NCBI GenBank assembly: GCA_020348925.1
Contig: CP070758.1
Span: forward strand, 1,074,237-1,135,038
Source of the DNA: Gemmatimonadota bacterium
GTDB taxonomy: Bacteria; JBHIER01; G020348925
DNA: 60,802 nucleotides
Reading direction: 5' to 3'
In this document: piece by piece, positions 9,978 to 60,802 of the stretch
Layout of the letters: each line of letters begins with the position of its first letter
How positions within the stretch are numbered: the first letter of the stretch is position 1
Made by a program: the position numbers and the translations under genes
Notes under the pieces: model-generated
What the model was told of the DNA's origin: nothing
The model's input: only the letters and a program-made list of their open reading frames with translations
Databases searched by the model: none

Positions 9978-10240
9978 GAGATGATACCTCTCTTAAGATG
10001 AACGGTGAAACCCATGATTCAGTAAGATCACAATTCAGGGAGTTACAATAATCACAATTCCAGGGAAAGTTCTGCGATTGTCTTTGATGGAAAATCAAAA
10101 AAGATTTTAACGACAGGCAAAAGTAAAATTTGAACATCGCGCCATCAAACAATTGTAAAGCACCTCACGATCCACTGGCAACATAGGCAGTATCTTGTAC
10201 CGAATTGAATATAGATATGATCGAATATAAAAGTCAAGGT
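9978..10240 (-). promoter_or_regulatory. Conserved promoter and ~230-nt leader of zinc-ribbon gene A
   Basis: Promoter TTGACT (10237-10232), an 18-nt spacer, then TATATT (10213-10208). The leader to the ATG at 9977 shares ordered blocks with the leader of zinc-ribbon gene B: TGCCAGTGGATCG (10180-10168), an AATCGCAGAACTTTC-type block (10079-10065), and TTGTAACTCC (10048-10039). Block positions relative to promoter and ATG agree within a nucleotide or two. Long conserved leaders are known for cold-shock mRNAs; the mechanism here is unproven. Confidence 0.6.
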
Positions 10241-44185: not shown

Positions 44186-44705
44186 TAGTATTGTGCAGAA
44201 AAAATAAAACTCTTTCTGAGCTGGGCGAGAATACTTAAAAGAAGTATGTTAACAAAAGTTCGAAGAGCATAAGTCCCTAAAATATAATAATTACATCCTG
44301 TGCAGCTCTTCTGTACTCTCAAACCATTTCTCTTGCGAAACTCACGTTTTGGGCGAAGATGAAATGTAATGCATTTAGGCAGGATACAATCAGTATTTGG
44401 TTCAAAAAGATTTTATGCATGTCTAAGATATTCTTTCAAGAGTGGCATTTGTATTTTCGATTCTCAAAGATCATGATCGTACTGAGAATCAACTCATTTC
44501 CAACATTTTGTCAAAAATGAATGTTATCCAAGAGAATCGTTACTTTCACTGCAAAAAAGACAGAATTAAACCATAGAAAATCATCCCCCCATCAAATTCA
44601 ATATTACAGATTTAGGGAGAAATGTCCCTGCAATAGACAGTGGTGTTTCAAAATACAATTCCACTTTCTTTATTATAAAAAGACTCTCACCTCGTAATTA
44701 GCTTT
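44186..44705. other. Divergent intergenic region upstream of kinase 1
   Basis: No gene seen. It separates the aconitase/citrate lyase operon (minus) from the kinase array (plus) and must hold promoters for both. TATTAT at 44671-44676 is a weak -10 candidate for kinase 1, at about the same distance from the start as the -10 of kinase 4. Confidence 0.35.
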
Positions 44706-44795
44706 TCCACTTGCTTTTAGACAAGAAACTGAATAGCTTACATAGAGATCTATCTATCGCTGGATTCCTCTTAACAGGAGGTTTATAAGCAAGTT
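44706..44795 (+). promoter_or_regulatory. 90-nt conserved leader, copy 1 (before kinase 1)
   Basis: Aligns without gaps to 57488-57577 before kinase 4, including CTTG...CAAG half-sites, GAATAGCTTAC, AGATCTATCTATCGCT, and AACAGGAGGTTTATAAGCAAG with the ribosome site. Conservation beyond the Shine-Dalgarno suggests a shared regulatory site, or a recent duplication. Confidence 0.65.
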
Positions 44796-47378
44796 ATGAT
44801 CGGTGAGACCATTTCCCATTACAAAATCCTCGAAAAGCTTGGTGAAGGCGGCATGGGCGTGGTGTACAAAGCCCAGGACACCAAGCTCGATCGTACAGTA
44901 GCTTTAAAATTTCTCCCACCCGAACTCACCAGAGATCCAGAGGCAAAGGAACGCTTCGTTCAAGAGGCCAAGGCAGCGGCGGCTCTTAAACAACACAACA
45001 TCTGCACCATCCATGAGATTAATGAAACCAGAGATGGTCAGACATTTATAGCCATGGACTGCTACGAGGGCCTGACGCTGAAGGGAAAAATTGAAAGTGG
45101 GTCGTTAAAACTGGAGGAAGCCGTCGATATCGCTATGCAGGTTGCCCAAGGCCTGACCAAGGCGCACGAACAGGAGATTGTACATCGGGACATTAAACCT
45201 GCAAATATCATCCTTGACGAGGATGGTGTGGCAAAGATCCTTGACTTCGGTCTTGCCAAATTGAAAGGGCAAGCCAGGATCACCCGTACTGGTACTACTG
45301 TTGGGACGGTAGCCTACATGTCGCCTGAACAAGCACAAGGGATAGATGTTGATCATCGCACAGACATCTGGTCCCTCGGTGTTGTGCTTTATGAAATGCT
45401 CACTGGGAAGACTCCTTTTTCCGGAGAACATGAAGCTGCAATAATGTATTCAATCATCAACGAAGAACCAGAACCCATTCAGAAGTATCGGTCGGATCTG
45501 TCGTCGGAGCTACTGCATGTGCTGAGCAGGGCATTGGAGAAAAATCCTGAGGAGCGTTACCAGTCCGTAAATGACATGCTCATCGATCTCAAGCGGTTGA
45601 AGCGGGATACGGATCGGGTTTCTCGAGAATCGATTTCCGAGATGACCGTTCCATCAAGACCCGAGTCAGTCAAGGGGCCGCGTCTTTCAAAAAGGTTGTG
45701 GATCGCCGGTATCGGCGTTGTTGCCGTACTCGCCATCGTTCTTGCTGTTTGGAGGACTTGGTTCGACCGGGAAGCTGAACCGGCGCAACCCCGTGTCGTG
45801 GTCTCCGTGTTCGAGAATCGCACGGGAGATTCTTCGCTCGATGCGTTGGGAAGCATGGCCATGGACTGGATCACTCAGGGATTAGCACAGTCGGGTGTGG
45901 CCGATGTCGTCCCCACCGTATCGGTCATGCAATACGCCCGTACCTATGATTCAGCGGAGGGCAAACCCTTAATTCAAACGCTCATCTTACAAACCGGCGC
46001 CACCATCGCGGTTTCGGGCGCTTATTATGTGCACGGGGACAACCTGCAATTCCAGGCCGAGGTGACCGACGCGTTGCGTGATGAACTCATCCATACGATA
46101 CCGCCCGTCATCGGATCCAGGGAGAATCCGATAGCCGGTATCGATGAGCTGCGTCAACGCGTCATGGGTGTCGTGGCCGGGCATATCGATCCGAGTTTTC
46201 AGCTGCGTATGCTATCTGAACCTCCCAGTTTCGATGTCTACCGCGAGTACGTGACCGGCACGGACCTTTTCGGTACGGATTATCCGCGGGCCATCGGTCA
46301 CTTTGAACGGGCGGCCGAGCTTGATTCGATGTTCATGCCGGCACGTATGCGTATTGCTGTTGCCTACGGGAATCAGGGGCAATGGGCCAGGGCAGACTCC
46401 ATTTGTCGCTTCATCAACCGACACCGGGAGCGTCTGAGTCCGTTTATGCGGCTTTACCTGGACTGGTACAGGGCCGTTATCCGAGGAAATGACGCCGAAG
46501 CCTACCGGTTCATCCGTCAGGCTGGTGAAATGGCGCCCAATGATTGGGTGACCAACTATCTTATCGGGTTTTTCGCAAGAAATGTGAATCGCCCCGGTGA
46601 GACCGTGGAGGTATATTCACAAATAGATTATGTGCGTACCGGTCATATCGTTGGTTCGTGGCGATTTGGTGTCCTCTGCGAGGCGCACCATATGCTGGGG
46701 GATTATGAGAGGGAATTGCAAGAAGCGCGACGTGGACAGGAGTATTTCCCGGATCTTCTATCGTTACGCGAGGACGAGGTGCGCGCCCTGGCAGGCTTGG
46801 GCCGGATCGAAGAAATCAACAAAGTGATCGACGAGAGCCTTTCCATCTCTTCCTCTTCTTCATCTTGGAGCCCAGGCTTGGTCATGTGTGGGGCGGCTGC
46901 TGAGCTGCGGGTCCGTGGTTATAAGGAAGAAGCAAAGGCAATCGCAGAACGGGCCGTGGCCTGGTATCAAAACCGTGGAACGGGTGATAATCGTTATAGC
47001 CTTGCGCGTTCACTCTATTTGGCCGAACGCTGGCAGGAAGCCGAAGCCATCTTTGAAGGGCTATCTGCGGAGGAGCCAGATGACATCGATTACATGGGGT
47101 TTCTGGGAACCCTGGCGGCACGCAGAGGGAATCGAGAAGGGGCACGACAGATTTCAGAAGAACTCAAACGTATCGAACGGCCTTATCTGTATGGCGATCA
47201 TACGTATTGGAGGGCCTGCATTGCCGCGCTACTCGGTGAACGCGAACAGGCCGTGGCCCTGCTGAGGGAATCCTTCGCCCAGGGCTATAATTATGGCGTT
47301 CTCCTCCATAATGACATGGATCTGGAACCCTTGCGTGATTACCGACCTTTCCAGGAGCTGATACGACCGAAAGGATAG
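44796..47378 (+). CDS. Membrane Ser/Thr kinase with TolB-like and TPR domains (kinase 1)
   Basis: 860 residues. The N-terminal Hanks-type kinase is complete: G-loop GEGGMG (16-21), Lys38 in VALKFL, HRDIKPAN (130-137), DFG (150-152), and SPEQ in the activation segment. One membrane helix follows (301-319). Outside it is a TolB/FlgO-like domain (VVVSVFENRTGDSSLDALGS, then ATIAVSGAYYVHGDNLQFQA), then TPR-like repeats to the end. It likely phosphorylates cytosolic targets in response to an envelope signal. First of four paralogues; its C-terminal half is the most divergent. Preceded by the 90-nt leader. Confidence 0.9.
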   Translation: MIGETISHYKILEKLGEGGMGVVYKAQDTKLDRTVALKFLPPELTRDPEAKERFVQEAKAAAALKQHNICTIHEINETRDGQTFIAMDCYEGLTLKGKIESGSLKLEEAVDIAMQVAQGLTKAHEQEIVHRDIKPANIILDEDGVAKILDFGLAKLKGQARITRTGTTVGTVAYMSPEQAQGIDVDHRTDIWSLGVVLYEMLTGKTPFSGEHEAAIMYSIINEEPEPIQKYRSDLSSELLHVLSRALEKNPEERYQSVNDMLIDLKRLKRDTDRVSRESISEMTVPSRPESVKGPRLSKRLWIAGIGVVAVLAIVLAVWRTWFDREAEPAQPRVVVSVFENRTGDSSLDALGSMAMDWITQGLAQSGVADVVPTVSVMQYARTYDSAEGKPLIQTLILQTGATIAVSGAYYVHGDNLQFQAEVTDALRDELIHTIPPVIGSRENPIAGIDELRQRVMGVVAGHIDPSFQLRMLSEPPSFDVYREYVTGTDLFGTDYPRAIGHFERAAELDSMFMPARMRIAVAYGNQGQWARADSICRFINRHRERLSPFMRLYLDWYRAVIRGNDAEAYRFIRQAGEMAPNDWVTNYLIGFFARNVNRPGETVEVYSQIDYVRTGHIVGSWRFGVLCEAHHMLGDYERELQEARRGQEYFPDLLSLREDEVRALAGLGRIEEINKVIDESLSISSSSSSWSPGLVMCGAAAELRVRGYKEEAKAIAERAVAWYQNRGTGDNRYSLARSLYLAERWQEAEAIFEGLSAEEPDDIDYMGFLGTLAARRGNREGARQISEELKRIERPYLYGDHTYWRACIAALLGEREQAVALLRESFAQGYNYGVLLHNDMDLEPLRDYRPFQELIRPKG

Positions 47379-47381
47379 ATA

Positions 47382-50030
47382 ATGATCCACCAAAAAGACG
47401 GCGGACAAGTCGGCAAAACCATATCCCATTACAAAATCCTCGAAAAGCTCGGTGAGGGTGGAATGGGTGTGGTGTATAAGGCCGAGGATACGAAGCTTAA
47501 ACGAACTGTGGCCCTGAAGTTTCTCCCACCCGAACTTACCCGTGATCCTGAGGCGAAGAAGCGCTTCATCCACGAAGCACAGGCTGCGGCGGCACTCAGT
47601 CATCCCAATATCTGCACGATTTTCGAAATCAACGAATCGGAGGATCAACTCTTCATCGCCATGGAGTACATTGAGGGTCAGGACCTGAAAGAGAAGATCG
47701 CTGCTGGTCCGATGAAAATGAGCGATGCTATAGATGTCGCCACTCAGGTTGCAGAGGGGCTCCACGAGGCCCATGAGAAGAGCATCGTTCACAGGGACAT
47801 CAAGCCGGCCAATATCATGATGACGAGCAAATCCCAGGTGAAGATCATGGATTTCGGGCTGGCAAAGCTGAGAGGGCAGACGAAGCTGACCAAAGAAGGG
47901 ACAACTCTCGGTACAATAGCATACATGTCACCGGAGCAAACACGGGGCGAGGAGGTCGATCGTCGGTCGGACATCTGGTCCATTGGCGCTGTTTTGTATG
48001 AAATGATCACCGGGCAACTGCCCTTCAAAGGGGACTACGAGCAGGCAGTGATGTATTCCATCATAAACGAAATCCCGGAGCCCATTACCGGCCTTCGAAC
48101 CGGCGTGCCATTGGAGGTAGAAAAAATCATCACGAAATGCCTGGATAAAGATCCGTCCACTCGGTACCAGCACGTGGAAGAGCTGATTGTGGATTTGCGC
48201 AGGTTCTCAAAAGAGTCGGAGTTAAAAGGAGCTTATTCCGGAACAGACGTGAGACAAAGAACACCGAAAAAGAAAATTTTACCATATGTGATAGTGGGAA
48301 TTGTCCTGGCTGCAATAGTATTGATGGTTATGCGATATCAATTTTTCGCTCCGGGGAAAGAGGATTTCATCTCGCAAAGAAAAATGATGGTTGTGTTACC
48401 TTTCGAAAACCTGGGTGCTGCAGATGATGAATATTTTGCCGACGGTATAACCGAGGAAATTACCAGTCGGCTTGCCTCCATAAAAAGTTTGGGTGTCATA
48501 TCGCGCAAGAGTGCCCTCGTATACGGGAGAACGGATAAAACCATCAGAGAGATTGGTGAGGAGTTGAATGTTGAGTACGTGCTTGAAGGAACCGTCCGCT
48601 GGGCTCGCGCTCCTGACGCTCCTGATCGGGTTCGAATTACCCCTCAGCTCATTCGGGTCTCCGATGACACCCATCTCTGGGCAGAAACCTACGAGCGCAT
48701 CATAGATGATATTTTCACCATCCAATCGGACATTGCTCAAAAGGTCACAGAGCAATTGGGGATCACACTCCTCGATTCGGAACGCAGATCCGTTGAAGCA
48801 AAACCGACCGGGAACCTCGAAGCCTACCAGGCTTACCTTCGTGGCCGATACTTCGCAGAAAGACCCCATTTCTCTTTGGAAAACTGGAATCAGGTGATAC
48901 GGAATTACCAGCAGGCAGTGGACCTTGATCCCAGTTTTGCACAAGCTTGGGCAGAGCTGTCCAGAGCTCACGCAAGGCTTCATTTCTTTCGGCACGATCT
49001 GTCTGAGGAGCGACAGGAGATGGCCAGACATGCCGCGGATCAGGCCCTCGAACTGGCCCCGGAAACTTCGGAGGTACACATCGCCCTGAGTTACTACTAT
49101 CTCTGGTCTTTGAGGGATTCCGAGCAGGCACTCAAAGAGCTGGAGATTGCCGAGAAGGGTTTACCCAATAATGCGGAAATCTTGAAAGCGAAAGCTTACA
49201 TCTTTGAGCTTCACGGGCGCTATGAGGAAGCTCAGAATGCCTTTGAAAGGGCCTTCGAGCTCAGCCCTCGAGACGCATCGCTTCCCACCGAGCTCACATT
49301 AGTCTTGTGGGTTACTCGCAATTACCCGCAGGCGGTGGAAGTCGCCAATCAGGCGATCGCCTTGGCGCCAGATGAAGCCTGGCCTTATCTTGGAAAAACC
49401 TTTACTTACTGGAGCTGGAAAGGCCCAACGGAAGAAGCGCGAACTGCGCTCGAGGCCATTCCGGTAGAGCACAGCTGGGTGCCATGGACCTGGTTCTGGC
49501 AGGAGATGTATGAAGGAAGGTATCGGGAAGCTCTTAAGCGTCTCTCTACCACTTCGGGTGAATGGATTCGACTGAAAACGTGGGCCAGGCCGATATGCTT
49601 ATTAGAGGCCTTCGCATTCGATTTTATGGGTGAATCGCAGCGTGCCCGTTCGAATTACAAAAAGGCAAGGATATTACTGGAGAAGGAGGTCGAGGTGTGG
49701 CCCGAAGATCCTCGGCTCCACAGCTCTCTGGGCATCGCTTACGCGGCCCTGGGTCACAAGGAAGATGCGATTCGTGAGGGGAAACGAGCCGTGGAGCTTC
49801 TTCCAATCACTGAGGACGCTTTTTACGGCCTGCCTTACCTCCATGATCTTGCGCACATTTATACGCTGTCGGGAGAGCATGAGGCGGCTCTGGACCAGAT
49901 AGAGCATCTTCTTACGATACCTTCGTGGATATCGATTTCCTGGCTTAAAATGGATCCCCGTTTTCGTGCGTTACGGGATCATCCCAGATTTCAAATTCTG
50001 GTGGAGAAATATTCAAGAGACGCAGGATGA
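47382..50030 (+). CDS. Membrane Ser/Thr kinase with TolB-like and TPR domains (kinase 2)
   Basis: 882 residues, intact. The kinase domain has all catalytic motifs (GEGGMG, Lys46, HRDIKPAN, DFG, SPEQ). It has an 8-residue N-terminal extension compared with kinase 1. A membrane helix (LPYVIVGIVLAAIVLMVMRY, about 306-325) precedes a TolB-like domain (MMVVLPFENLGAADDEYFAD, ITEEITSRL, VEYVLEGTVRW) and TPRs. It starts 3 nt after kinase 1 stops, with AAAGGATAG as ribosome site, and its stop overlaps the start of kinase 3 (ATGA). It is the closest relative of kinase 3. Confidence 0.9.
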   Translation: MIHQKDGGQVGKTISHYKILEKLGEGGMGVVYKAEDTKLKRTVALKFLPPELTRDPEAKKRFIHEAQAAAALSHPNICTIFEINESEDQLFIAMEYIEGQDLKEKIAAGPMKMSDAIDVATQVAEGLHEAHEKSIVHRDIKPANIMMTSKSQVKIMDFGLAKLRGQTKLTKEGTTLGTIAYMSPEQTRGEEVDRRSDIWSIGAVLYEMITGQLPFKGDYEQAVMYSIINEIPEPITGLRTGVPLEVEKIITKCLDKDPSTRYQHVEELIVDLRRFSKESELKGAYSGTDVRQRTPKKKILPYVIVGIVLAAIVLMVMRYQFFAPGKEDFISQRKMMVVLPFENLGAADDEYFADGITEEITSRLASIKSLGVISRKSALVYGRTDKTIREIGEELNVEYVLEGTVRWARAPDAPDRVRITPQLIRVSDDTHLWAETYERIIDDIFTIQSDIAQKVTEQLGITLLDSERRSVEAKPTGNLEAYQAYLRGRYFAERPHFSLENWNQVIRNYQQAVDLDPSFAQAWAELSRAHARLHFFRHDLSEERQEMARHAADQALELAPETSEVHIALSYYYLWSLRDSEQALKELEIAEKGLPNNAEILKAKAYIFELHGRYEEAQNAFERAFELSPRDASLPTELTLVLWVTRNYPQAVEVANQAIALAPDEAWPYLGKTFTYWSWKGPTEEARTALEAIPVEHSWVPWTWFWQEMYEGRYREALKRLSTTSGEWIRLKTWARPICLLEAFAFDFMGESQRARSNYKKARILLEKEVEVWPEDPRLHSSLGIAYAALGHKEDAIREGKRAVELLPITEDAFYGLPYLHDLAHIYTLSGEHEAALDQIEHLLTIPSWISISWLKMDPRFRALRDHPRFQILVEKYSRDAG

Positions 50031-52648
50031 TAGGCAGAATTATCTCTCACTATAGAATTTTGGAAAAGCTCGGTGAAGGCGGCATGGGTGTGGTGTATAA
50101 GGCTGAGGACAACAAACTTGACCGCATTGTTGCTCTGAAGTTTCTTCCACCTGAGTTAACCAGGGATCCGGAAGCCAAGGAACGCTTTGTGCATGAAGCG
50201 AAAGCCGCTTCGTCCTTCGAGCACAATAACATCTGCACCATTTACGAGATAGATGAGACCAATGACGGTCAATTATTCATTGCCATGGCCTGTTACGATG
50301 GGGAAACGTTGGAAGAAAAAATCCGGCGCGGTCCTCTGAAAATTGAAGAAGCTGTTCATCTTGCCATGCAGATGGCTGAAGGCCTGAAAGATGCCCATGA
50401 AAAGGACATCATCCACAGGGACATGAAACCTGCCAACATCATGGTAACCTCAAAAGGGCAGGTGAAAATCATGGACTTCGGTCTGGCTAAATTACGAGGA
50501 CAGACAAAGCTTACAAAGGAGGGGACGACTTTAGGTACCGTCGCATACATGTCCCCGGAGCAAGCACGAGGAGGTGAGGTCGATCAACGGTCTGATATAT
50601 GGTCACTGGGTGTCATGCTGTATGAAATGGTTACAGGGCAGCGTCCGTTCGAAGGAGAATACAATCAAGCAGTGATGTATGCCATCATGAATAACGATCC
50701 TGAACCGATAACTGGCTTGCGAACCGGCGTGCCTATGGAACTTGAAAGGATCATCCATAAGTGTATCGAAAAAAATCCTGCTGAGAGATACCAGACCGGG
50801 GCCGACCTGTTAGCCGATTTTCATCATCTTCAAAGAATCTCTTCCACACAGACCATTCCATCTAAAACGCGAATTTCCAAACCACCAGTGAGATCAATGG
50901 CAAGAAAATTAACCGGGCTTGCTGCTCTTGTGATAGTAGCAACCGTTGCCATTGTTCTGCTCGTACGCCAATTCACACCTTCCGTACACGAGGTAATACC
51001 TGAAAGAAAAATGCTGGTGGTTCTGCCCTTCGAGAACCTCGGTCCGCCAGAGGACGAGTATTTCGCCGACGGAATTACAGAAGAGATCACGAGCCGGCTG
51101 GCAGCCCTTCACGGGCTTGGAGTGATTTCTCGCACCAGTGCCTTTTATTACAAGGATACGAAGAAGACATTGAAGCAAATCGGTGATGAGTTGAAGGTCG
51201 ACTATGTGCTTTAAGGGACTGTACGGTGGGAACGTGCAACTGATAAACCGAGTCGTGTCCGGGTCACGCCCCAGCTCATCCGTGTTTCGGACGACACCCA
51301 TCTCTGGACCTCTCGCTATGATGAACAACTGGATGAAATCTTTTCTGTCCAATCGAGCATTGCTGAGGAAGTAGTCCGAGAGTTAAACGTCAGCTTACTC
51401 GAGCCGGAGAAACAGGCCATCCAGGAAAAGCCGACGGAGAATCTTGAAGCATACCAGGCGTATCTCCGGGCTATGAGCTATTGGGCACAACCTGGATATG
51501 ATCCAGAACGATTTGACCTGGCCATACAGATGTTCGAGAGGGCGGTGGAGCTTGACTCTACCTTTGTCCTGGCATATGTTGAACTTGTCGATGGTCATGG
51601 CGGGCTCTATTATCACCTCGATCCCCGTGAGGAGCGCCTGGCCAAAGCGAAAAAGGCTCTGGACCGGGCATTGACCCTTCAACCCGAACTGTCGAAGGTT
51701 CGTCTGGCGAAGGGATATTTTCACTATTACTGTTTCAAGGAGTACGATCTCGCTCTCGAGATATTTCATGCCGTGGAAAGGGATTTACCCAATAACTCGG
51801 ATATACAGGCGGCCATCGGATACATATACAGACGGCAGGGGAAAATAGATAAAGCGGTCGATCGCCTTGAACGGGCTCTTGATCTCGATCCTCAGAGTGC
51901 TCACTTACATTCTGAATTAGGCGAAACGTACGAAGCGCTTCGAGTATACGACAGGGCCGATCAGTATTTCACTCAGGCCATTGCACTGGCGCCTGATACC
52001 CGTCAGACGTATGAGATGAAAGCACAGAACTCACTCAGGTGGAAGGGAAATACAAATGAGGCTCGTTCCATACTCGCCCAGTCGCCTGGGAATGAACAAT
52101 CCATTAGTTGGATCGAATTCGATCTTTATGACCGGGAATTCAATGATGTATTGGATCGTATTTCCTCAATATCGCCAATATTGGTTGATCAACCGGTGTT
52201 CCAGGGACTCCTTCTTGTATATAAAGGTGTAAGCCATCACTATCTGAACCAGCCCGAACTCCGCCATGCCGCCTTCGACGAAGCGCGTATCCTCATGGAA
52301 AACAGGTTGAATGAGGTACCGGAGAGCCATTATTGCCATGCTATTCTGGGTATTGCCTTATGTGGATTGGGCCGGAAGGAGGAAGCAATCCGTGAAGGGG
52401 AAATTGCTGTGGAATTGATATCCGACGACCGGTTCCTCGGACCTTCATTATTAGAGAGCTTGGCCAGAATTTATGCATGTGTGGATGAAGGGGATAAGGC
52501 TATAGATATCCTTCAACAGCTCATGGAGACCCATTATGATGGAGCTATTTCAGTGTGGAACCTGAAAAAAAGTGTATCGTGGGATCCCCTTCGTGACAAC
52601 CCGCGCTTTCAAAGATTGATCGAGAAGTATTCCGTGGTGGAATCATGA
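50027..52648 (+). pseudogene. Kinase 3: kinase-TolB-TPR gene broken by one nonsense codon
   Basis: The open frame runs 50027-51214 and resumes without shift to 52648. The intervening TAA (51212-51214) replaces the Glu of the conserved YVLEGTVRW (kinase 2 has CTTGAAGGA, here CTTTAAGGG). Upstream part: full kinase domain (GEGGMG, HRDMKPAN, DFG), membrane helix (GLAALVIVATVAIVLLVRQF) and half the TolB-like domain. Downstream: the rest of the TolB domain and TPRs, possibly re-initiated at 51473. A truncated, membrane-anchored kinase lacking its TPR sensor may still be made. Otherwise the gene is a recent pseudogene, or the base is a sequencing error. Confidence 0.85.
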
Positions 52649-52725
52649 TCGACAAAACCATATCTCACTACAAAATCCTCGAAAAGCTCGATGAAGAGAG
52701 GATCTCGTTATGTTTAAGAAGTTAA
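52645..52725 (+). pseudogene. 26-codon stub of a further kinase copy
   Basis: Translates MIDKTISHYKILEKLDEE, then ISLCLRS and stop. The first 15 codons match the starts of the kinase paralogues. The ATG overlaps the kinase 3 stop as ATGA, exactly as kinase 3 begins on kinase 2. The stub then changes into the ribosome site (AGAGAGGA) of the S41 protease gene, whose ATG (52710) lies inside it. It marks a recombination or insertion junction. Confidence 0.75.
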
Positions 52726-54794
52726 ACGTAATTTCGGTAATTATAATTACATCAATTTGTATGACCAGTCCAAGGGCATCTGAACACTTTACCGATCAAA
52801 GAGCGGTGCATCCTATTATAGAACTTTCAAAAAGTAAATTTTACAATTCTGGAATATTACCAATTACTTCAACTCCCCTTTACGGATCCGAAACGGACTG
52901 GTGTGAAATAATTGACTCGACATGGGGAGAAGGTGCACCCACTGAAGAAAAACTCAGAATTTTCGATATGTTTTGGGAGACGATCGATCATAATTTTGCG
53001 TGTTTTCAAGGTTTGGATATTGAGTGGGATGATTTGCGGGCAAGATACAGACCCGAAATCGAGGGTGGAGTGAGCCGGGGCCGCTTTTGTGCAATTATGA
53101 ATCATCTTGCTTTGACATTGAGAGAATCCCATACGGCAATTATTGATACAGTAGTCAATTACACTTACCCACAACCTGGCATTCCGCTAATGCTACTTTA
53201 TACCAGGAAAATTAGCTCCGAATATGCCAATCACTTTTCTGGGCATTTTGGGGCCGGCCTGTCTCCCCTTCCTGATAGTACTCTGCTCGTATATAATACT
53301 GTAGAATCACATCCTTTAGGGCTCAGACCCGGTGATATTGTTCTTGGTTATGATGGAATTCCCTGGCATCAGCTTTTGCAGGAGTTATTGGAGGCCCAAC
53401 TCCCCATATATGGTTCCTCGGGAAGTACAGAGAGTTCATATACTCATATTCTTCAAAAGAGTGCAGGTTTGAACTGGCATTTGTTTAATACCATTGATGT
53501 CGTTAAGTATGATACTGGTGATACACTTCATCTTGATACAAGTCCGCTAATAAATCAAGACATGGAGTTTGTTGACTCAGAGTCAATGGATATTCCCGGT
53601 GTTCCAAAACCAGACATAATGAATAATGATCCCGTAAGCTATGGAATTATCGAAGGGACAAAAATCGGCTATATTTACGTTTGGATATGGTATTTTGATG
53701 CTGATTCACAGTTTTATGATGCTGTCTATGACTTACTGGACAATTATGAGACTATCGGACTTATAATAGATATTCGCAACAACACAGGTGGAAATATGTT
53801 TTTGTTTGATAAAGGATTATCACTACTCTTCAATTCTTCTGTAAGCACGATTGGGTTTGCTTCCAGATGTAATCCTAACGATCATTTTGCGATGTGCAAC
53901 GCCTGGGGTCCTGAATATTATGAGCTCCAACCTGATCCGACGACTTACTATGACAGACCAATTGCCGTGCTTATCGGACCATTATGTATAAGTGCAGGCG
54001 ATATGCTTGCATTGTGGATGAAATTTCATCCGAAGTGTCGGTTCTTTGGGAAACCAACGATGGGAGCTTTCAATGGTCCAACTGGACTATCTTTGGAGAA
54101 TGAAGATTGGAGATGCAGATATGCTGAATTCGAGGCCTATTTAGCAGATGATCCTGAGCATTATTTAACGCGTGAAGAATTGAATGTAGACGTACCTGTG
54201 TGGCTTGAACCTGATGATGTGGTCCAAGAATTGGATACAGTTGTTGAAGAGGCCAAGGCATGGATTCTCAATCAACCACATATCCGCACGTCCAGCCTTT
54301 CTCTTGATTTTGGGGTAGTTACGGTGTGTGGGTCAACTAGCCAAACACTAACTATTTATAATGATGGTTTCGTGACATTAGAGGTGAATCCACTTTCATC
54401 GAGTGATCCACAATTTGAGGTTTCATCCAAATTTCTTAGCATTGCAGGATCAGGATCAACAGATGTGGAAATAATTTTTACACCAAGAAGTGAGAACTCG
54501 GTTGAAGCATCTCTAACCCTATTATGCAATGATTCAAACCGACCACAACCTCAAATAAATCTTTATGGAGTGGGAATTTTGGAAATCGAAATCCAATTTG
54601 GTGATGTAAATAGAGATTCAGTTATTAATGTGCTGGATGTTTTGTCCGTGGTGAACCATATTCTGGGCACTGCAGAGTTCACTGATACGGAGGTGATGTG
54701 TCGGGCTGATTGCAATGCAGATGGACAAGTTAATGTCTTGGATGCCTTGGGTATTGTGAATGTAATTCTCGGAATAGGTGAGTGTGAAACGTGA
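52710..54794 (+). CDS. Secreted S41-family protease with Hydin-like and dockerin domains
   Basis: 694 residues. Signal peptide (VISVIIITSICMTSPRAS), an N-terminal helical domain, a PDZ-like segment (GLRPGDIVLGYDGIPW, about 204-219), and an S41 core: TKIGYIYVWIWYF, RNNTGG (356-361) and the nucleophile Ser428 in LCISAGDM. Then an ASPM/SPD-2/Hydin-like beta domain (about 525-620; LDFGVVTVCGSTSQTLTIYN) and a dockerin pair (GDVNRDSVINVLD; ADCNADGQVNVLD). Base composition is visibly more A+T-rich than kinases 1-2. The stop overlaps the frame leading into the C25 gene. Confidence 0.88.
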   Translation: MFKKLNVISVIIITSICMTSPRASEHFTDQRAVHPIIELSKSKFYNSGILPITSTPLYGSETDWCEIIDSTWGEGAPTEEKLRIFDMFWETIDHNFACFQGLDIEWDDLRARYRPEIEGGVSRGRFCAIMNHLALTLRESHTAIIDTVVNYTYPQPGIPLMLLYTRKISSEYANHFSGHFGAGLSPLPDSTLLVYNTVESHPLGLRPGDIVLGYDGIPWHQLLQELLEAQLPIYGSSGSTESSYTHILQKSAGLNWHLFNTIDVVKYDTGDTLHLDTSPLINQDMEFVDSESMDIPGVPKPDIMNNDPVSYGIIEGTKIGYIYVWIWYFDADSQFYDAVYDLLDNYETIGLIIDIRNNTGGNMFLFDKGLSLLFNSSVSTIGFASRCNPNDHFAMCNAWGPEYYELQPDPTTYYDRPIAVLIGPLCISAGDMLALWMKFHPKCRFFGKPTMGAFNGPTGLSLENEDWRCRYAEFEAYLADDPEHYLTREELNVDVPVWLEPDDVVQELDTVVEEAKAWILNQPHIRTSSLSLDFGVVTVCGSTSQTLTIYNDGFVTLEVNPLSSSDPQFEVSSKFLSIAGSGSTDVEIIFTPRSENSVEASLTLLCNDSNRPQPQINLYGVGILEIEIQFGDVNRDSVINVLDVLSVVNHILGTAEFTDTEVMCRADCNADGQVNVLDALGIVNVILGIGECET

Positions 54795-54832
54795 TTATTT
54801 TTGGTGAATATCTTAAGAGGGAGGTGTTTGAT

Positions 54833-57277
54833 ATGCTTCATCATATGATCTCAAAGTTGGGGATAATCAGTGCAATAATGGGTCTTGTTTCTTCTGTGCT
54901 GTTGGCAGAGAATTTGACTCTGAACTTAAGCTCAAAGGATTATTCCATAGTTGAATTGGAAGATGGCCAACAGACGATCCAAATGGAAGACTTTGGGTAT
55001 CTTCTGGATCCAGGGAAACCCCTGCTGCCGGCAAAAGTATTCATGATCGCTCTACCGCCTGGGGCAGAGGTGCTGAATGCAGCTATTACTGGAATGAGTC
55101 CCATCGAACTCCCTGGAACATATAGAATAGAGCCAGCTCCGCCAATCGTGCCTTCGGATAACAGAAGGGAGTTGGTGAAAAGGTTGATACGAGAATGGAA
55201 AGAAAACTATGATGCTACGTATTCATCTGATCAAATCTACCCTGAAAAAGTTGGAGAATATCTGGGACCGGGAGGCTTGAGGAAATATACCTTTGCTAAG
55301 ATAAGTTTCTTCCCCTTTGCCTTTCGACCAGTATCAGGAAAACTTGTGTACTACCCTTCTGCTATTGTATCCATAGACTATACATTACCTTTGTCAGACA
55401 ACTCAAAAGCTCTTGAAGTAGGACGACTCCTTTCGGACACATTAGGAGACGATCGTGCTTCTCGGTTATTGGTCAATTTTTCTCAAGCGAGCCGTTGGTA
55501 TGCTCCGGAGAAGAGAGATGAAGTTCAAAACACAACCTATGACTATGTGATCATCACCACTCCTGAATTGGAAGATGCGGTTGAACCTTTGATGAAATGG
55601 AAACAAGGAATAGGTTTCAGTGTAAAGGTGATCACTATTGCCTGGATTGATGAAAACTATACCGGATTTGATATGGCTGAGATGATTAGGAATTTTCTCA
55701 AGGATAAGTATCCTGCATCTGAGTGGGGAATTCAATATGTTCTTATTGTGGGAGACATAAGCGATATTCCCATGAGATACTGTTTTCCTGATCCTGATAA
55801 TCATGTATTTACACCGGACGATCTTTATGATAATGCCTATATTAGTGGAGAAGTTCCTACCGATTATTATTATGCTGATTTGACTGGAAACTGGGACTCA
55901 GATGGAGATGGATATTATGGAGAGTTTCGTCAAGATGAAGAAGTAGATTTTGTTTCTGAGGTTTGGATTGGACGAATACCGTTAAGCGATTGGTTGACTG
56001 TTAATAATATCTGTAAGAAAATTGCACTATTTGAGAGCGACGTTGGTTCTTGGAAAAACAATGCTCTACTTCTTGGTGCAATAACGTTCTATAACTTCGA
56101 AGACGGCGATCCACACTATAGCAAAACTGATGAAGCCGGTGTGATGGAAGACATGAAAACATTTTTATTAGAGGGATGGAATTGCACACGGATGTATGAA
56201 AAAGATGGATTAGATCCATCGTCATTTACATGTGAGACTCCGCTGACTCAAGACAATGTAGTATCATATTGGTCAACAAATCAATATGGTATTGTAACTT
56301 GGTCGTCGCATGGATGGGTAAATAACGCTGCTCGTGTAGTCTGGGAACAGGATAATGGAAATGGCTTTCCTGAATGGGCAGAGGATGAATTGCATGGATA
56401 TCCATTTATTGAAAACGCAAATACAGCCTCATTAGATGATGACTATCCCTCAATAGTTTTCGGCTCGGCTTGTATGAATTCATATCCTGAAGTTGACAAT
56501 CTCGGTACAAGATTATTGGAAAGGGGTTCTTCAAGCATAGTGGCGGCTACCCGTGCTGTGGCAGGTCCTTTTGGTAGACAACACAAGGATGTAGGTGGGA
56601 ATATCTCATGTAACTACTATTTCTTTCATTATATTATTAGTGAGGAGAATAAAGTTGGAGAAGCACTCTTCAACTCAAAAAACTATTACCATGACCATTT
56701 CTTATCTTCAGGTTTCTGGGACTATCAGAATCTGTACGCAAATTGTTTATACGGTGATCCGGCATTGGTTAGGGAAGGTATACCAAAAGATTCTCAATCA
56801 CTCACTATTCTCAATAATTTCATGCCTCCAGCTTTTGTTGGTTTTGCGTATAGCGAGCCCCTTCTGGCTGTGGGTGGAACACCTCCGTATCACTGGAATT
56901 TGACTGATGGATCCGTGCCCGATGGAATATCGCTTGATACTCTTTCAGGGGTCATTTTAGGAACACCAACAGTTGTCGAAACGACTACCTTCACTATTGA
57001 GGTAACAGACGCCGAACACAAAACAGACTTTCAAGATTTCTCTATGACTACTTCTATTGGAAAGAAGGGCGATGTAAATGCAGACATGCAGATTAACGCT
57101 GTCGATATGCTTCAGGCAGTAAATATACTGACAAGAAGTTACTCACCGACTCATTTTGAAATGTGGGCTGCTGATTGTAATGGTCCAGTTGGAAATTGTG
57201 ACGGTGATGGAGTAATTAATGTATTAGATATTGTTAAATTTGTGAGATTTATTTTAACTTTGGAGGAATGTCCTTAA
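54833..57277 (+). CDS. Secreted C25 (gingipain-like) cysteine protease with Ig and dockerin domains
   Basis: About 814 residues; GGGAGGTG lies 6 nt before the ATG at 54833. Signal peptide, a gingipain-type N-terminal beta region, then a Peptidase_C25 domain (about 236-645) with VLIVGDISDIP, the catalytic His in VTWSSHGWV (about 493) and Cys in IVFGSACMNSYP (about 547). A He_PIG-type Ig domain (FVGFAYSEPLLAVGG) and a dockerin (GDVNADMQINAVD; DGDGVINVLD) follow. The same Ig-dockerin tail ends the metalloprotease at 1758-4655. Likely cleaves extracellular proteins. It pairs with the S41 gene as a two-gene cassette. Confidence 0.9.
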   Translation: MLHHMISKLGIISAIMGLVSSVLLAENLTLNLSSKDYSIVELEDGQQTIQMEDFGYLLDPGKPLLPAKVFMIALPPGAEVLNAAITGMSPIELPGTYRIEPAPPIVPSDNRRELVKRLIREWKENYDATYSSDQIYPEKVGEYLGPGGLRKYTFAKISFFPFAFRPVSGKLVYYPSAIVSIDYTLPLSDNSKALEVGRLLSDTLGDDRASRLLVNFSQASRWYAPEKRDEVQNTTYDYVIITTPELEDAVEPLMKWKQGIGFSVKVITIAWIDENYTGFDMAEMIRNFLKDKYPASEWGIQYVLIVGDISDIPMRYCFPDPDNHVFTPDDLYDNAYISGEVPTDYYYADLTGNWDSDGDGYYGEFRQDEEVDFVSEVWIGRIPLSDWLTVNNICKKIALFESDVGSWKNNALLLGAITFYNFEDGDPHYSKTDEAGVMEDMKTFLLEGWNCTRMYEKDGLDPSSFTCETPLTQDNVVSYWSTNQYGIVTWSSHGWVNNAARVVWEQDNGNGFPEWAEDELHGYPFIENANTASLDDDYPSIVFGSACMNSYPEVDNLGTRLLERGSSSIVAATRAVAGPFGRQHKDVGGNISCNYYFFHYIISEENKVGEALFNSKNYYHDHFLSSGFWDYQNLYANCLYGDPALVREGIPKDSQSLTILNNFMPPAFVGFAYSEPLLAVGGTPPYHWNLTDGSVPDGISLDTLSGVILGTPTVVETTTFTIEVTDAEHKTDFQDFSMTTSIGKKGDVNADMQINAVDMLQAVNILTRSYSPTHFEMWAADCNGPVGNCDGDGVINVLDIVKFVRFILTLEECP

Positions 57278-57487
57278 ATTTTTTCTGTTATTTTTGGAGA
57301 TATCTATCAACATCGTTTACATTCCGGGATTGAAGGATAACTTTGAAAAAAAGTGCTTTCTATCAATATAATGCGTATCTATCTTACCCAATATACTGTG
57401 CTGTTCTCCGTCAATACTTTATACGTGAAATGTGGATTACATATGTTATAATGAGGCTGTCTCAAATGTCTTAAATGTCCGTATTTT
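57278..57487 (+). promoter_or_regulatory. Upstream region of kinase 4 with extended -10 promoter
   Basis: TGTTATAAT at 57444-57452 is an extended -10 element about 125 nt before the kinase 4 ATG. No gene or terminator is evident in this stretch. Confidence 0.45.
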
Positions 57488-57577
57488 TCCCCTTGTTTTT
57501 AAACAAGAAAATGAATAGCTTACGAATAGATCTATCTATCGCTAACTTCCTTTTAACAGGAGGTTTATAAGCAAGCC
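57488..57577 (+). promoter_or_regulatory. 90-nt conserved leader, copy 2 (before kinase 4)
   Basis: Gap-free match to the leader of kinase 1. Here the CTTGTTT-TT-AAACAAG half-sites form a perfect 7-bp palindrome (57492-57507), a candidate operator or hairpin. It ends in AACAGGAGGTTTATAAGCAAG and then the ATG. Confidence 0.65.
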
Positions 57578-59809
57578 ATGATCGGCGAAACTATCTCTCA
57601 CTATAAAATACTGAAAAAACTGGGTGAAGGTGGCATGGGAGTGGTATATAAAGCTAAAGATACCAAACTTGACCGCACAGTTGCACTAAAATTTCTTCCT
57701 CCAGAACTCACCAAAGATCCTAATGCAAAGGAGCGCTTTATTCAAGAGGCAAAAACTGCTTCAGCCCTGCAACACAACAACGTCTCCACTATCCATGAAA
57801 TTGATGAAACTGCTGATGGCCAAATATTCATAAGCATGGACTTCTATGAGGGAGAATCCTTACAAGAGAAGATTGAAAAAGGGTCGCTCGATATAGAAGA
57901 AGCGATTGATATTGGCACTCAGATAGCCGAGGGTCTTCATGAAGCCCATGAAAAGGGAATCGTCCATCGAGATATCAAATCTGCCAATATTATGATCACA
58001 TCCAAAGGGCAGGCGAAGATCATGGACTTCGGTCTGGCCAAGTTGAGAGGGCAGAAAAAACTAACAAAAGAAGGGACGACTGTCGGGACGGTTGCCTACA
58101 TGTCTCCCGAGCAAGCGCGGGGTGATGAAGTCGATCATCGGACGGATGTCTGGTCTCTTGGTGTGGTGCTCTATGAGATGTTGACGGGACATATGCCGTT
58201 CAAGGGTGATTACGACCAGGCACTAATATACTCAATATTGAATGAAGATCCAAAACCACCTTCTTTCTATCGCACAGAAATACCGCCCTACTTAGAACAG
58301 ATCCTCATAAAAATGTTAGAGAAGGAGTCGAAAAATAGGTACCAGACTATGCAGGAGGTACTTGTAGAGTTAAATAAAACAGGTGTTGATTCTTCAACAT
58401 CACAAGAGTGTCAAAAGTCGATAGTCGTTCTGCCCTTTAAAAATATGAGCCCTGACAAAGAAAACGAGTATTTCAGTGATGGCCTTACTGAAGAAATTAT
58501 TACGGACCTTTCAAAGATACATGCACTCCGAGTTATTTCCCGTAATTCTGCAATGATGCTGAAAGGATCTCGAAAATCCACAAAAAATATCGCACGAGAG
58601 TTAAACGTTCAATACGTCTTGGAAGGGAGTGTACGGAAAGCCGGGAATAATCTCCGAATCACTGCGCAGTTGATTGATGCAAAAGATGATACACATCTAT
58701 GGGCAGACAAATATAGTGGGACGCTGGATGATGTTTTTGTGATTCAGGAGAAAGTCTCGAACGAAATCGTTAAAGGCTTGCAGATAAAGTTGAGTCCGGA
58801 AGAAAAAAAAGAAATCGGACAACATCCTATCCAGGATATGCGTGTCATGGAGTGCTGGCTCAGGGCGAAACAGGAGATTCACCACTATACGAAAGAATCT
58901 CTTGATAGGGCTGTTTCCATGATCGAAGATGGTCTGGAAGTAGTCGGTGATAATGCTCTCCTTTACTGGGGCCTCGGATATATTAACTGGTTTTATGTCA
59001 ATTTGGGAATTCATTTGGATACAAAATATTTAAATAGAGCAGAAGAATATGTCAACAGAATATTTGAATTGGACTCTAATTCCTTTTATGGATTTCAATT
59101 ACAGGTTTTGATTGCTTATAAGAGAGGTGATTTTAAAAAGTCGATTGAATACACAAAGCGGGCGCTTGAACTTGAACCGACCAACCCTGAAGCTCTGGAC
59201 CACATTATCTGGATGTATGCAGATGTGGGAAAAACAGAGAATTCTGCTAAATTAATTGACAGGTTATTATCTGTGGATCCTTTGACACCTCACAACCACT
59301 GGGCGGAGGGATTTACCTTGATGGTGAGCGGACACTTAGAGGATTCAGTCAAATCTTTCCGAAAATGCTATGAATTGGAATCTGGAAATTATGTCTGGAG
59401 ATGGGCGTATGCATCAGCACTTTATATGAATAAAGAGTACGATAACGCAGATGCAATAGCAGATCTTGTGGAAAAAGAGGCCTCTAATGATCTTTTGAGC
59501 AGCTTGTTATTATTCACCAAATATGCGATAAGAAGAGATAGTGATAAAGCACTGCGAATGGTTACAGATGATCATCAAGCATTTAGCGATTGGGATGAGT
59601 TGGTGGCCTGGGCACTTGCACAAGGCTATGCGCTAATTAATGAAAAAGAAAAGTCATTGAACTTTCTTGGAAAAGCGGTTAACCGTGGATTTATAAATTA
59701 TCCATTTTTCTCCAGATATGATCCCTTTCTTGAGAACATCCGCGATGAGGAGAGATTCAAGAAATTGATGGAAAAAGTAAAATATGAATGGGAGCATTTT
59801 GAGATATAA
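57578..59809 (+). CDS. Cytosolic Ser/Thr kinase with TolB-like and TPR domains (kinase 4)
   Basis: 743 residues. The kinase domain is complete (GEGGMG, Lys38, DFG 150-152), although the catalytic loop reads HRDIKSAN instead of HRDIKPAN. It passes directly into the TolB-like domain (SIVVLPFKNMSPDKENEYFS, IARELNVQYVLEGSVRKAG) near residue 275 with no membrane helix, unlike kinases 1-3. TPR-like repeats follow. It is therefore probably soluble and senses an intracellular cue. More A+T-rich than kinases 1-2. It lies after the protease cassette and shares its leader with kinase 1. Confidence 0.9.
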   Translation: MIGETISHYKILKKLGEGGMGVVYKAKDTKLDRTVALKFLPPELTKDPNAKERFIQEAKTASALQHNNVSTIHEIDETADGQIFISMDFYEGESLQEKIEKGSLDIEEAIDIGTQIAEGLHEAHEKGIVHRDIKSANIMITSKGQAKIMDFGLAKLRGQKKLTKEGTTVGTVAYMSPEQARGDEVDHRTDVWSLGVVLYEMLTGHMPFKGDYDQALIYSILNEDPKPPSFYRTEIPPYLEQILIKMLEKESKNRYQTMQEVLVELNKTGVDSSTSQECQKSIVVLPFKNMSPDKENEYFSDGLTEEIITDLSKIHALRVISRNSAMMLKGSRKSTKNIARELNVQYVLEGSVRKAGNNLRITAQLIDAKDDTHLWADKYSGTLDDVFVIQEKVSNEIVKGLQIKLSPEEKKEIGQHPIQDMRVMECWLRAKQEIHHYTKESLDRAVSMIEDGLEVVGDNALLYWGLGYINWFYVNLGIHLDTKYLNRAEEYVNRIFELDSNSFYGFQLQVLIAYKRGDFKKSIEYTKRALELEPTNPEALDHIIWMYADVGKTENSAKLIDRLLSVDPLTPHNHWAEGFTLMVSGHLEDSVKSFRKCYELESGNYVWRWAYASALYMNKEYDNADAIADLVEKEASNDLLSSLLLFTKYAIRRDSDKALRMVTDDHQAFSDWDELVAWALAQGYALINEKEKSLNFLGKAVNRGFINYPFFSRYDPFLENIRDEERFKKLMEKVKYEWEHFEI

Positions 59810-59812
59810 TGA

Positions 59813-59842
59813 ATGATCGATGAGACTGTAAACTGCGCTTAA
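59813..59842 (+). pseudogene. Short remnant of another kinase start
   Basis: ATG ATC GAT GAG ACT GT matches the kinase 1 start (ATG ATC GGT GAG ACC AT) at 14 of 17 positions. It lies 4 nt after the kinase 4 stop, where a next tandem copy would begin, and then hits a stop (MIDETVNCA). Short, so chance resemblance cannot be excluded. Confidence 0.45.
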
Positions 59843-59904: not shown

Positions 59905-60447
59905 ATGATAAAATTTCTCATGATTATTCCTTTGGCTCTGATACTCTCTTTTATGATCGGCTGTCAGGACAGGGAAACAATAGCCACACTTGAAGAATTC
60001 AAAGCCAAGGCAGAGGTTGAAAAGCAGAATAAGGAGATTGTTCGTAAATGGATAGAAGAAGTCAATAAAGAAAATTTTGAACAACTGTTCAGTGAATTAT
60101 GGGCTGAGGACTGTAGACAATATATGAATTCAAATCCAGAACCCATAGACAATGAACAATTTAAACAAATGATTGAACATTTCTATTCAAATTTCCCAGT
60201 CACCACACATGAAATACATGATCTCATAGCGAAGGGAGATATGGTCGTAGCAAGGTTTTCGGCACGAACAACTCATGATGTGGAGTCGTATGGGGTACCG
60301 GCTACCGGCAGGGAACTCGAGTGGAGAGCCATATCCATATTCCAGATATCTGACGGTAAGATACAAACAAGATGGGAAGTTGCGGATATACTAAGCATGT
60401 ACGAACAACTTGGCATGGAGCTTCAAATGAAGAAAGCCAAAAAATAA
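59905..60447 (+). CDS. SnoaL-like lipoprotein
   Basis: 180 residues. Signal peptide with lipobox (LSFMIGC), then a SnoaL-like polyketide-cyclase/NTF2 fold: NKEIVRKWIEEVNKENFEQL, MIEHFYSNFPVTTHEIHDLI, GDMVVARFSARTTHDVESYG, and FQISDGKIQTRWEVADILSM. GGGAGGA precedes the ATG. Unlike the cytosolic NTF2-like proteins at 14.1-14.9 kb, it should be membrane-anchored on the periplasmic or outer face. Ligand unknown. Confidence 0.85.
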   Translation: MIKFLMIIPLALILSFMIGCQDRETIATLEEFKAKAEVEKQNKEIVRKWIEEVNKENFEQLFSELWAEDCRQYMNSNPEPIDNEQFKQMIEHFYSNFPVTTHEIHDLIAKGDMVVARFSARTTHDVESYGVPATGRELEWRAISIFQISDGKIQTRWEVADILSMYEQLGMELQMKKAKK

Positions 60448-60602
60448 AGAGTTGTTTTAGATTTGTGTACGTCACATACTTCTTTAGCCTGTATTATTCA
60501 TAGAATTGGTCTGAATATAAATTAACATGCCTCTTTTATTTGACTTATGAAAGTTAATGGATTTGAACTCCGTTGGTTTATGTTTTCCAAAGAAACCCTG
60601 CA
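60448..60602. other. Short region with no recognised feature
   Basis: Nothing supported between the lipoprotein stop and the double palindrome at 60603. The stretch 60714-60802 also shows no gene. Confidence 0.3.
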
Positions 60603-60713
60603 TGTCATTCCGGTTTTATACCGGAATCTCCTTCGTAGAGAAGAAGTTGAGCCCACCGAGGAGATTCCGGCACGGAGTTTACCCCGTATTCTTTTACGGG
60701 GGCCGGAATGACA
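60603..60713. repeat. Double REP-like element with terminal inverted repeats
   Basis: TGTCATTCCGG (60603-60613) pairs with CCGGAATGACA (60703-60713). Inside, CCGGAATCTCC (60621-60631) pairs with GGAGATTCCGG (60660-60670). This is two inverted REP-like units around a spacer, as in BIME structures; a single unit occurs at 40842-40872. Confidence 0.75.
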
Positions 60714-60802
60714 GCTTGTGAATAGAGCAGGTTAGAGACAAGAAATTGAAAAAAACACATAATCATGGCTGCACCCGACTGGCGAGCGGTATTGCGATTT
60801 GG

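What the first reader, a model, noticed from the sequence alone, without database searches (positions are those of the whole stretch)
44796..59842. Kinase array with embedded secreted-protease cassette
Four kinase-TolB-TPR paralogues, one broken, and two stubs of further copies surround two dockerin-tailed protease genes. Three kinases are predicted to be membrane-anchored with the sensor outside; the fourth is predicted to be soluble. Each next copy begins on or just after the stop of the previous one, which points to unit duplication. That proteases and sensors form one signalling-secretion system is a hypothesis from proximity only.
Basis: partly seen in the sequence, partly recalled or inferred. 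Interest (0 to 1): 0.7.

Follow-up and report, generated by a model that had tools for sequence, protein, structure and literature searches.

The report
Kinase genes sharing leader with surface proteins
A run of sensor-kinase genes in an uncultured bacterium lost one member where two secreted protease genes now stand, and a 100-base start region found before scattered kinases also sits before unrelated surface-protein genes, hinting that sensors and surface proteins are switched on together.

Summary
The array is real. Kinases K1-K3 (44796-52648) are packed stop-to-start; K3 is cut by an in-frame TAA (51212). Stub A (52645) is the truncated start of a lost fourth kinase, at whose place S41 and C25 protease genes stand. 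Two claims fail. K4 is not the next tandem copy: it has its own 300-bp upstream region and leader. Protease-kinase proximity is no more than chance: 1 of 11 strong C25 places within 5 kb of a kinase (P 0.33), 0 of 3 other S41 paralogues, 0 of 80 kinase loci from named genomes. Instead I found a ~100-bp leader with at least 17 copies here: 7 before kinases (K1, K4 included), 1 before a kinase pseudogene, 9 before genes with signal-like N-termini, two of these with a clear truncated kinase start. Among five kinases it is 82% identical where fourfold sites are 35%. K4's kinase domain groups with S13, whose sensor groups with S9 and A2, so the halves recombine. Best reading: shuffled sensor kinases whose 5' control region is shared with, and probably taken over by, surface-protein genes. 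Kinase-TPR arrays and dockerin-tailed gingipain-like proteases are known kinds; the leader is the new part, its function inferred.

The parts
44696..44794 (+). leader copy of K1 (family of at least 17)
   Evidence: sequence-only profile R2, 90.8 bits; 95 of 98 identical to the S13 leader
44522..44588 (+). partial copy of a dispersed intergenic repeat upstream of the K1 leader
   Evidence: profile R3, 22 bits
44796..47378 (+). K1: Ser/Thr kinase, one membrane segment, TPR
47382..50030 (+). K2: Ser/Thr kinase, one membrane segment, TPR
50027..51214 (+). K3, 5' part: kinase and membrane segment, ends at an in-frame TAA
51215..52648 (+). K3, 3' part: TPR region, open in the same frame
   Evidence: dN/dS against the intact paralogue A3 about 0.12-0.26
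52645..52725 (+). stub A: 15 codons of a lost kinase, then 11 unrelated codons and a stop, overlapping the S41 start
52710..54794 (+). S41 peptidase with signal-like N-terminus, Ig-like domain and dockerin
   Evidence: 47-52% identical to three paralogues elsewhere in the genome
54833..57277 (+). C25 (gingipain-family) peptidase with signal-like N-terminus, He_PIG and dockerin; the frame is also open from GTG 54791
57482..57575 (+). leader copy of K4
   Evidence: profile R2, 81.9 bits
57578..59809 (+). K4: Ser/Thr kinase, FlgO-like domain, TPR, no membrane segment
59813..59842 (+). stub B: 9-codon kinase-start remnant (weaker case)
59905..60447 (+). SnoaL-like protein with lipoprotein-type signal

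Best explanation
The locus is a product of a recombining kinase family. Membrane-anchored Ser/Thr kinases (catalytic domain inside, FlgO/TPR sensor outside) and a soluble variant multiply and exchange parts through their conserved 5' half: leader, start and kinase domain. In the array, a fourth kinase after K3 was lost except for its first ~46 nt, and the S41 and C25 protease genes now follow there, in line with K1-K3 and so probably co-transcribed with them. The leader is a ~100-bp control region, most likely regulatory DNA plus ribosome-binding site, shared by dispersed kinases and by at least nine genes with signal-like N-termini. Some of the latter carry an eroded kinase start between leader and gene, so they probably took over the control region of a decayed kinase. 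Shown: gene layout, stub homology, 17 leader copies and what follows them, leader conservation, tree conflict for K4/S13. Inferred: that the leader controls expression, that sensors and surface proteins are co-regulated, that the proteases act at the cell surface through dockerin-cohesin binding.
For: Stub A is collinear with an intact kinase start in another array. A profile built from 10 leaders found 17 places, 7 of them not used to build it (150 of 2126 candidates scored); the rebuilt profile again gives 17, with a gap from E 9e-10 to 0.015 (150 of 1393 scored). What follows: 7 kinases, 1 kinase pseudogene, and in 9 of 9 others a gene with a signal-like N-terminus, among them four NosD beta-helix proteins, one of which has a T9SS sorting tail, an S74-chaperone protein and a DUF362 protein with a Tat-like signal. 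By the loose rule 108 of 258 genes of an even 399-kb sample score as signal-bearing, by a stricter one 87. Truncated kinase starts are clear at 4316685 and 973753 and degraded at 4261841 and 24205 (by eye). Leader 82% identical against 35% at fourfold sites over 10 kinase pairs. K4+S13 kinase domains group with 99/99 support, while S13's FlgO domain groups with S9 and A2 at 96/96, K4 outside.
Against: 9 of 9 falls to 6 of 6 independent families, chance 0.005 (loose) or 0.0015 (strict), with a home-made signal rule, in a genome rich in such genes. No promoter was shown. The best sigma-70-like site of the region (57343-57372, 11 of 12) lies about 110 nt upstream of K4's leader core, so the leader may be transcribed rather than be the promoter. 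RNA structure is not supported by covariation nor Rfam. No convincing leader in 10 other genomes; G000 is the only genome of its phylum held, so conservation rests on paralogues and may partly reflect gene conversion. The two other arrays do not begin with this leader. Four of the nine non-kinase copies (4323253, 973071, 24205, 1887384) score only E 2e-7 to 0.007 with the first profile. Mosaicism is not uniform: of 9 kinase pairs computed, S6-S7 shows no contrast between halves and A3-B3 is more diverged in its TPR part; K3 and A3 stay together in both trees.
Confidence: 0.5

Rival explanations
1. The leaders and stubs are only debris: kinase genes decay often in this genome, and what follows a dead kinase is exported only because such genes are common here. 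The leader has no role for the downstream gene.
For: A multiply broken kinase with leader exists at 4729834. S10 and K3 carry in-frame stops. 34-42% of sampled genes score as signal-bearing.
Against: 9 of 9 (6 of 6 families) is above that background. At 647385 the leader's ribosome-binding site leads straight into the ATG of a signal-bearing gene. In the trio 4261841, 24205, 973071 the leader is 63-70% identical against 39-56% upstream and 51-58% in the spacer; the relic region is 55-68%, so only partly lower.
Confidence: 0.3
2. Proteases and kinases at this locus form a dedicated signalling-secretion module, in which the kinases sense and control the secreted proteases.
For: Co-directional genes with overlaps or short gaps from K1 to C25. 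A dockerin gene lies divergent beside one kinase of a Zixibacteria genome (L103).
Against: Association does not recur in this genome and no C25 or S41 is found in 80 kinase loci from named genomes. Dockerin tails are common here: 15 ORFs in 399 kb.
Confidence: 0.12
3. The kinase-protease junction is an assembly chimera at a repeated kinase start.
For: Kinases lie at contig ends in this scaffolded assembly (A4, B4, S11 run into 100-N gaps). GC3 falls from 0.51-0.57 (K1-K3) to 0.34 (S41, C25).
Against: No N in the window. The first 46 nt of the stub are at most 42 of 46 identical to any of 11 compared kinase starts, as an old remnant would be.
Confidence: 0.08

Closest known systems
Membrane Ser/Thr kinases with C-terminal TPR or WD40 arrays in Planctomycetota and Myxobacteria (PMC11032199, 12 passages read)
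   Same: cytoplasmic Pkinase, mostly one membrane segment, TPR in the periplasm; lineage-specific expansion, some duplicates adjacent
   Different: here a leader is shared with exported-protein genes and kinase and sensor trees conflict for K4/S13; that paper was searched for six terms only
Dockerin-tailed C25 gingipain-like peptidase and cohesin scaffoldin of Ca. Stygibacter, Cloacimonadota (PMC8542988, 6 passages read)
   Same: signal-bearing C25 protease with C-terminal dockerin in a genome with cohesins
   Different: here 96 cohesin places (73 over cut-off), and the C25 gene sits in a kinase array
Tandem kinase genes in other phyla found here (e.g. L120 Ignavibacteria, L132 Acidobacteria)
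   Same: same-strand kinase neighbours under 1 kb apart in 7 of 80 loci
   Different: no C25 or S41 match in any of the 80 loci

Membership tests
Hanks-type membrane kinase with TPR | Pkinase domain over cut-off | tested here: met
   K1, K2, K3, K4: 184-201 bits, cut-off 31.7
Hanks-type membrane kinase with TPR | catalytic Lys, HRD and DFG residues kept (motifs recalled) | tested here: met
   K38, H130-R131-D132, N137, D150-F151-G152 invariant in 11 aligned kinases incl. K1, K2, K4; HRD and DFG also seen in the K3 ORF
Hanks-type membrane kinase with TPR | one membrane segment between kinase and TPR | tested here: inconclusive
   hydropathy only: K1-K3 yes, K4 none
Peptidase C25 | C25 domain over cut-off | tested here: met
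   142.5 bits, cut-off 23; C25 propeptide 31.6 bits, cut-off 22
Peptidase C25 | catalytic His and Cys kept | not tested
   no solved relative found by sequence
T9SS sortase PorU | NCBIfam cut-off 420 bits | tested here: not met
   40 bits
Peptidase S41 | S41 domain over cut-off | tested here: met
   50.7 bits, cut-off 24; PDB relative 4l8k, with an SA pair aligned
Cohesin-dockerin complex | dockerin on both proteases | tested here: met
   40.9 and 24.6 bits, cut-off 22.9
Cohesin-dockerin complex | cohesins in the same genome | tested here: met
   96 places, 73 over cut-off; the model also rings in 2 of 14 control genomes (E. coli, Methanosarcina), so some may not be true cohesins
Cohesin-dockerin complex | physical binding of these dockerins | not testable with these tools
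   needs protein
Structured RNA leader (riboswitch or thermometer) | covarying base pairs | tested here: not met
   two structures, both within shuffled controls; no Rfam match at gathering score
Regulon with a shared upstream element | same upstream element before several transcription units | tested here: met
   17 copies
Regulon with a shared upstream element | drives transcription, co-expression | not testable with these tools
   no expression data

The most novel reading that the evidence does not exclude
Sensor kinases act as donors of a control cassette. Their recombining 5' ends seed the same regulated control region in front of surface-protein genes: a kinase copy lands next to a surface gene, decays, and leaves its leader to drive that gene. 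One regulatory input would then govern a growing set of sensors and surface proteins, including the S41 and C25 proteases through K1's operon.
Probability: 0.25. Interest if true: 0.65.

Novelty: new variant of a known kind. Interest (0 to 1): 0.48.

Why it matters
If the leader is a shared control region, it gives a directly testable regulon that ties Ser/Thr kinases with unknown inputs to surface proteins in a phylum with one held genome. It would also show a route by which gene decay rewires regulation. The conflicting kinase and sensor trees suggest how bacterial sensor repertoires diversify by swapping halves.

Tried and rejected
Structured RNA leader: rejected for lack of covariation; fold z-scores ran from -2.9 to +0.5 in 12 copies. 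Leader including the upstream block: the block is a separate dispersed repeat, 62 places at E<=1 with only 150 of 3027 candidates scored, so I kept to the 100-nt core. Search for named relatives by the C25 protein: 30 pattern matches, none a relative. Search of 10 other genomes for the leader: 5 have some match at E<=10, best E 8.8e-4 and partial. 'relatives' gave only same-domain genomes and 'phylum' only G000. A second leader type (A1 and S11, 95% identical over 174 nt) was not found before other genes: the other 4 of 6 matches are short (28-43 nt) and lie at its kinase-start end. A kinase-start-like site at 9998 has no kinase or leader nearby and is taken as chance.

Of the 14 loci with two or more kinase fragments, 13 remain after merging frames. 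Rows dropped before counts: for I used 11 of 14 C25 places and 25 of 28 kinase places, leaving out the three weakest of each; of 19 own-genome places only the 4 that cover the S41 domain. The signal rule is a home-made hydropathy rule that overcalls; for the nine leader genes the start was picked by hand. No significance test was run on the synonymous-site contrasts. The dockerin profile also catches calcium-repeat proteins such as L167, so the extrapolated dockerin number is an upper estimate.

Full report
What is there. Three kinase genes K1-K3 (44796-52648) run in one direction with a 3-nt gap and an ATGA overlap. K3 is interrupted by an in-frame TAA at 51212-51214; after it the frame stays open and its dN/dS against the intact paralogue A3 is about 0.12-0.26, so the break is probably recent or an error (inference). 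Stub A begins on K3's stop: the 75% alignment with array A runs through K3 and into the next kinase and stops at 52694. S41 (52710-54794) and C25 (54833-57277) follow; both have signal-like N-termini. After 300 bp comes K4 (57578-59809), with its own leader, then the short stub B and a SnoaL-like gene with a lipoprotein-type signal.

Setting. G000 is listed as one 5.04-Mb contig but consists of pieces joined by runs of exactly 100 N; the window's right end abuts one. PF00069 is found at 28 places, with two further four-kinase clusters at 657788-665922 and 4843763-4853087; their last genes run into N gaps. G000 is the only genome of its phylum held, so tests in close relatives were impossible.

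Protease-kinase link. Of 14 C25 places in the genome I used the 11 strong ones, and 25 of 28 kinase places. One C25 lies within 5 kb of a kinase (random mean 0.39, P 0.33), one of 4 S41 (P 0.15); only this locus has C25 within 10 kb of S41. The scaffold gaps make this test approximate. In 80 kinase loci from named genomes (1,073,913 bases; the best 80 of 585 confirmed) no C25 or S41 match was found by profiles that recover 9 of 9 and 4 of 4 own control loci, some of which built the profiles. 13 of the 80 hold two or more kinases and 7 hold same-strand neighbours under 1 kb apart. A dockerin profile hits 2 of 80, of which L103 (Zixibacteria) looks real and stands divergent from the kinase. Dockerins are frequent in G000: 15 ORFs in the 399-kb sample, which would extrapolate to at most about 190. 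Cohesin matches number 96, 73 over cut-off. So dockerin-tailed proteases are ordinary for this organism, and such a protease is described in Cloacimonadota (PMC8542988, passages read).

The leader. Blastn showed that the region before K1 and K4 is shared with other kinases. A profile of 10 copies found 17 places, 7 of them new, with E from 6e-34 to 0.007; a second profile of 16 copies again gave 17, the next match at E 0.015. In both searches only 150 candidates were scored (of 2126 and 1393), so 17 is a lower bound. Downstream: kinases S13, K1, S9, S8, K4, S10, S12; a pseudogene at 4729834; and nine genes with signal-like N-termini at 4316685, 973753, 2993785, 647385, 4261841, 24205, 973071, 4323253 and 1887384. 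Truncated kinase starts are clear at 4316685 (24-codon ORF) and 973753 (14-codon ORF), degraded at 4261841 and 24205 (by eye), and unclear or absent in the rest. The nine genes form six families by my reading of their N-termini and Pfam matches: three share one, two another. Chance of 6 of 6 is 0.005 with the loose and 0.0015 with the strict background.

Constraint. Among K1, K4, S8, S9 and S13 the 98-nt leader is 82% identical while fourfold sites of the kinase domain are 35% identical; K1 and S13 have 95 of 98 leader positions equal and 17 of 74 fourfold sites equal. Either the leader is under strong selection or it is homogenised by gene conversion. RNA pairing does not covary, which favours a DNA element. 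No promoter was demonstrated; the best sigma-70-like site of the region lies upstream of K4's leader core, so the leader may be transcribed.

Mosaic kinases. In the kinase-domain tree K4 groups with S13 (99/99). In the FlgO-domain tree S13 groups with S9 and A2 (96/96) and K4 lies outside, on a long branch. S9-S13 and S8-S10 have proportions of synonymous differences of 0.78 and 0.83 in codons 1-256 against 0.47 and 0.48 in codons 257-420; K3-A3 has 0.81 against 0.68 (257-395), 0.59 and 0.48 further on. This fits exchange of kinase domains between paralogues near codon 256. Against it, S6-S7 shows no such contrast (0.77, 0.78, 0.73), A3-B3 the reverse in its TPR part (0.67 against 0.91), and K3-A3 group together in both trees. 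No significance test was run, and gene conversion and domain swapping were not told apart.

Reading. Kinases with outside TPR sensors are a known kind (PMC11032199, passages read), and tandem copies occur in other phyla. What is unusual is that the 5' region is common to kinases and surface-protein genes and that eroded kinase starts stand in between in some cases. K1's leader heads the run that ends in S41 and C25, which would place the proteases in the same set. The regulatory role is inference. My literature searches were on kinases, dockerins and cohesins; none was made for such a leader, so I do not claim that it is absent from print.

Noticed in passing
G000:C1, 96 places: Cohesin domains at 96 places (73 over cut-off) and, by extrapolation from 15 ORFs in 399 kb, up to ~190 dockerin genes: a cellulosome-scale cohesin-dockerin set in a phylum with one held genome.
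   Followed up: partly
window 44522-44588; G000:C1, 62 places at E<=1: A dispersed intergenic repeat of ~80-105 nt with two inverted repeats by eye (AAAGTGAA..TTCACTTT and GACAG..CTGTC), often upstream of the leader but also elsewhere.
   Followed up: partly
window 60485-60734: Interspersed repeat with CCGGAATGACA-like palindromes, 78% identical to a copy in L013 and with shorter copies in L001 and L005; the contig ends just after it.
   Followed up: no
L001:11317-13947: Kinase A1, whose outside part resembles propeller repeats by eye rather than FlgO-TPR; its leader is shared only with S11.
   Followed up: no
L003:3815-6760: Gene with two complete kinase domains in one frame (two PF00069 places in a 990-codon frame).
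   Followed up: no
window 1770-2225 (-): The He_PIG-dockerin tail of C25 is 54% identical to the tail of another protein on the same contig, which suggests that tails are exchanged between proteins.
   Followed up: no
G000:C1:268926-268954: A 29-nt match to a kinase start with no PF00069 place listed there: possibly one more stub.
   Followed up: no
L103:8111-9064 (-): Dockerin-bearing signal-like gene divergent from a TPR-type kinase in a Zixibacteria genome.
   Followed up: no
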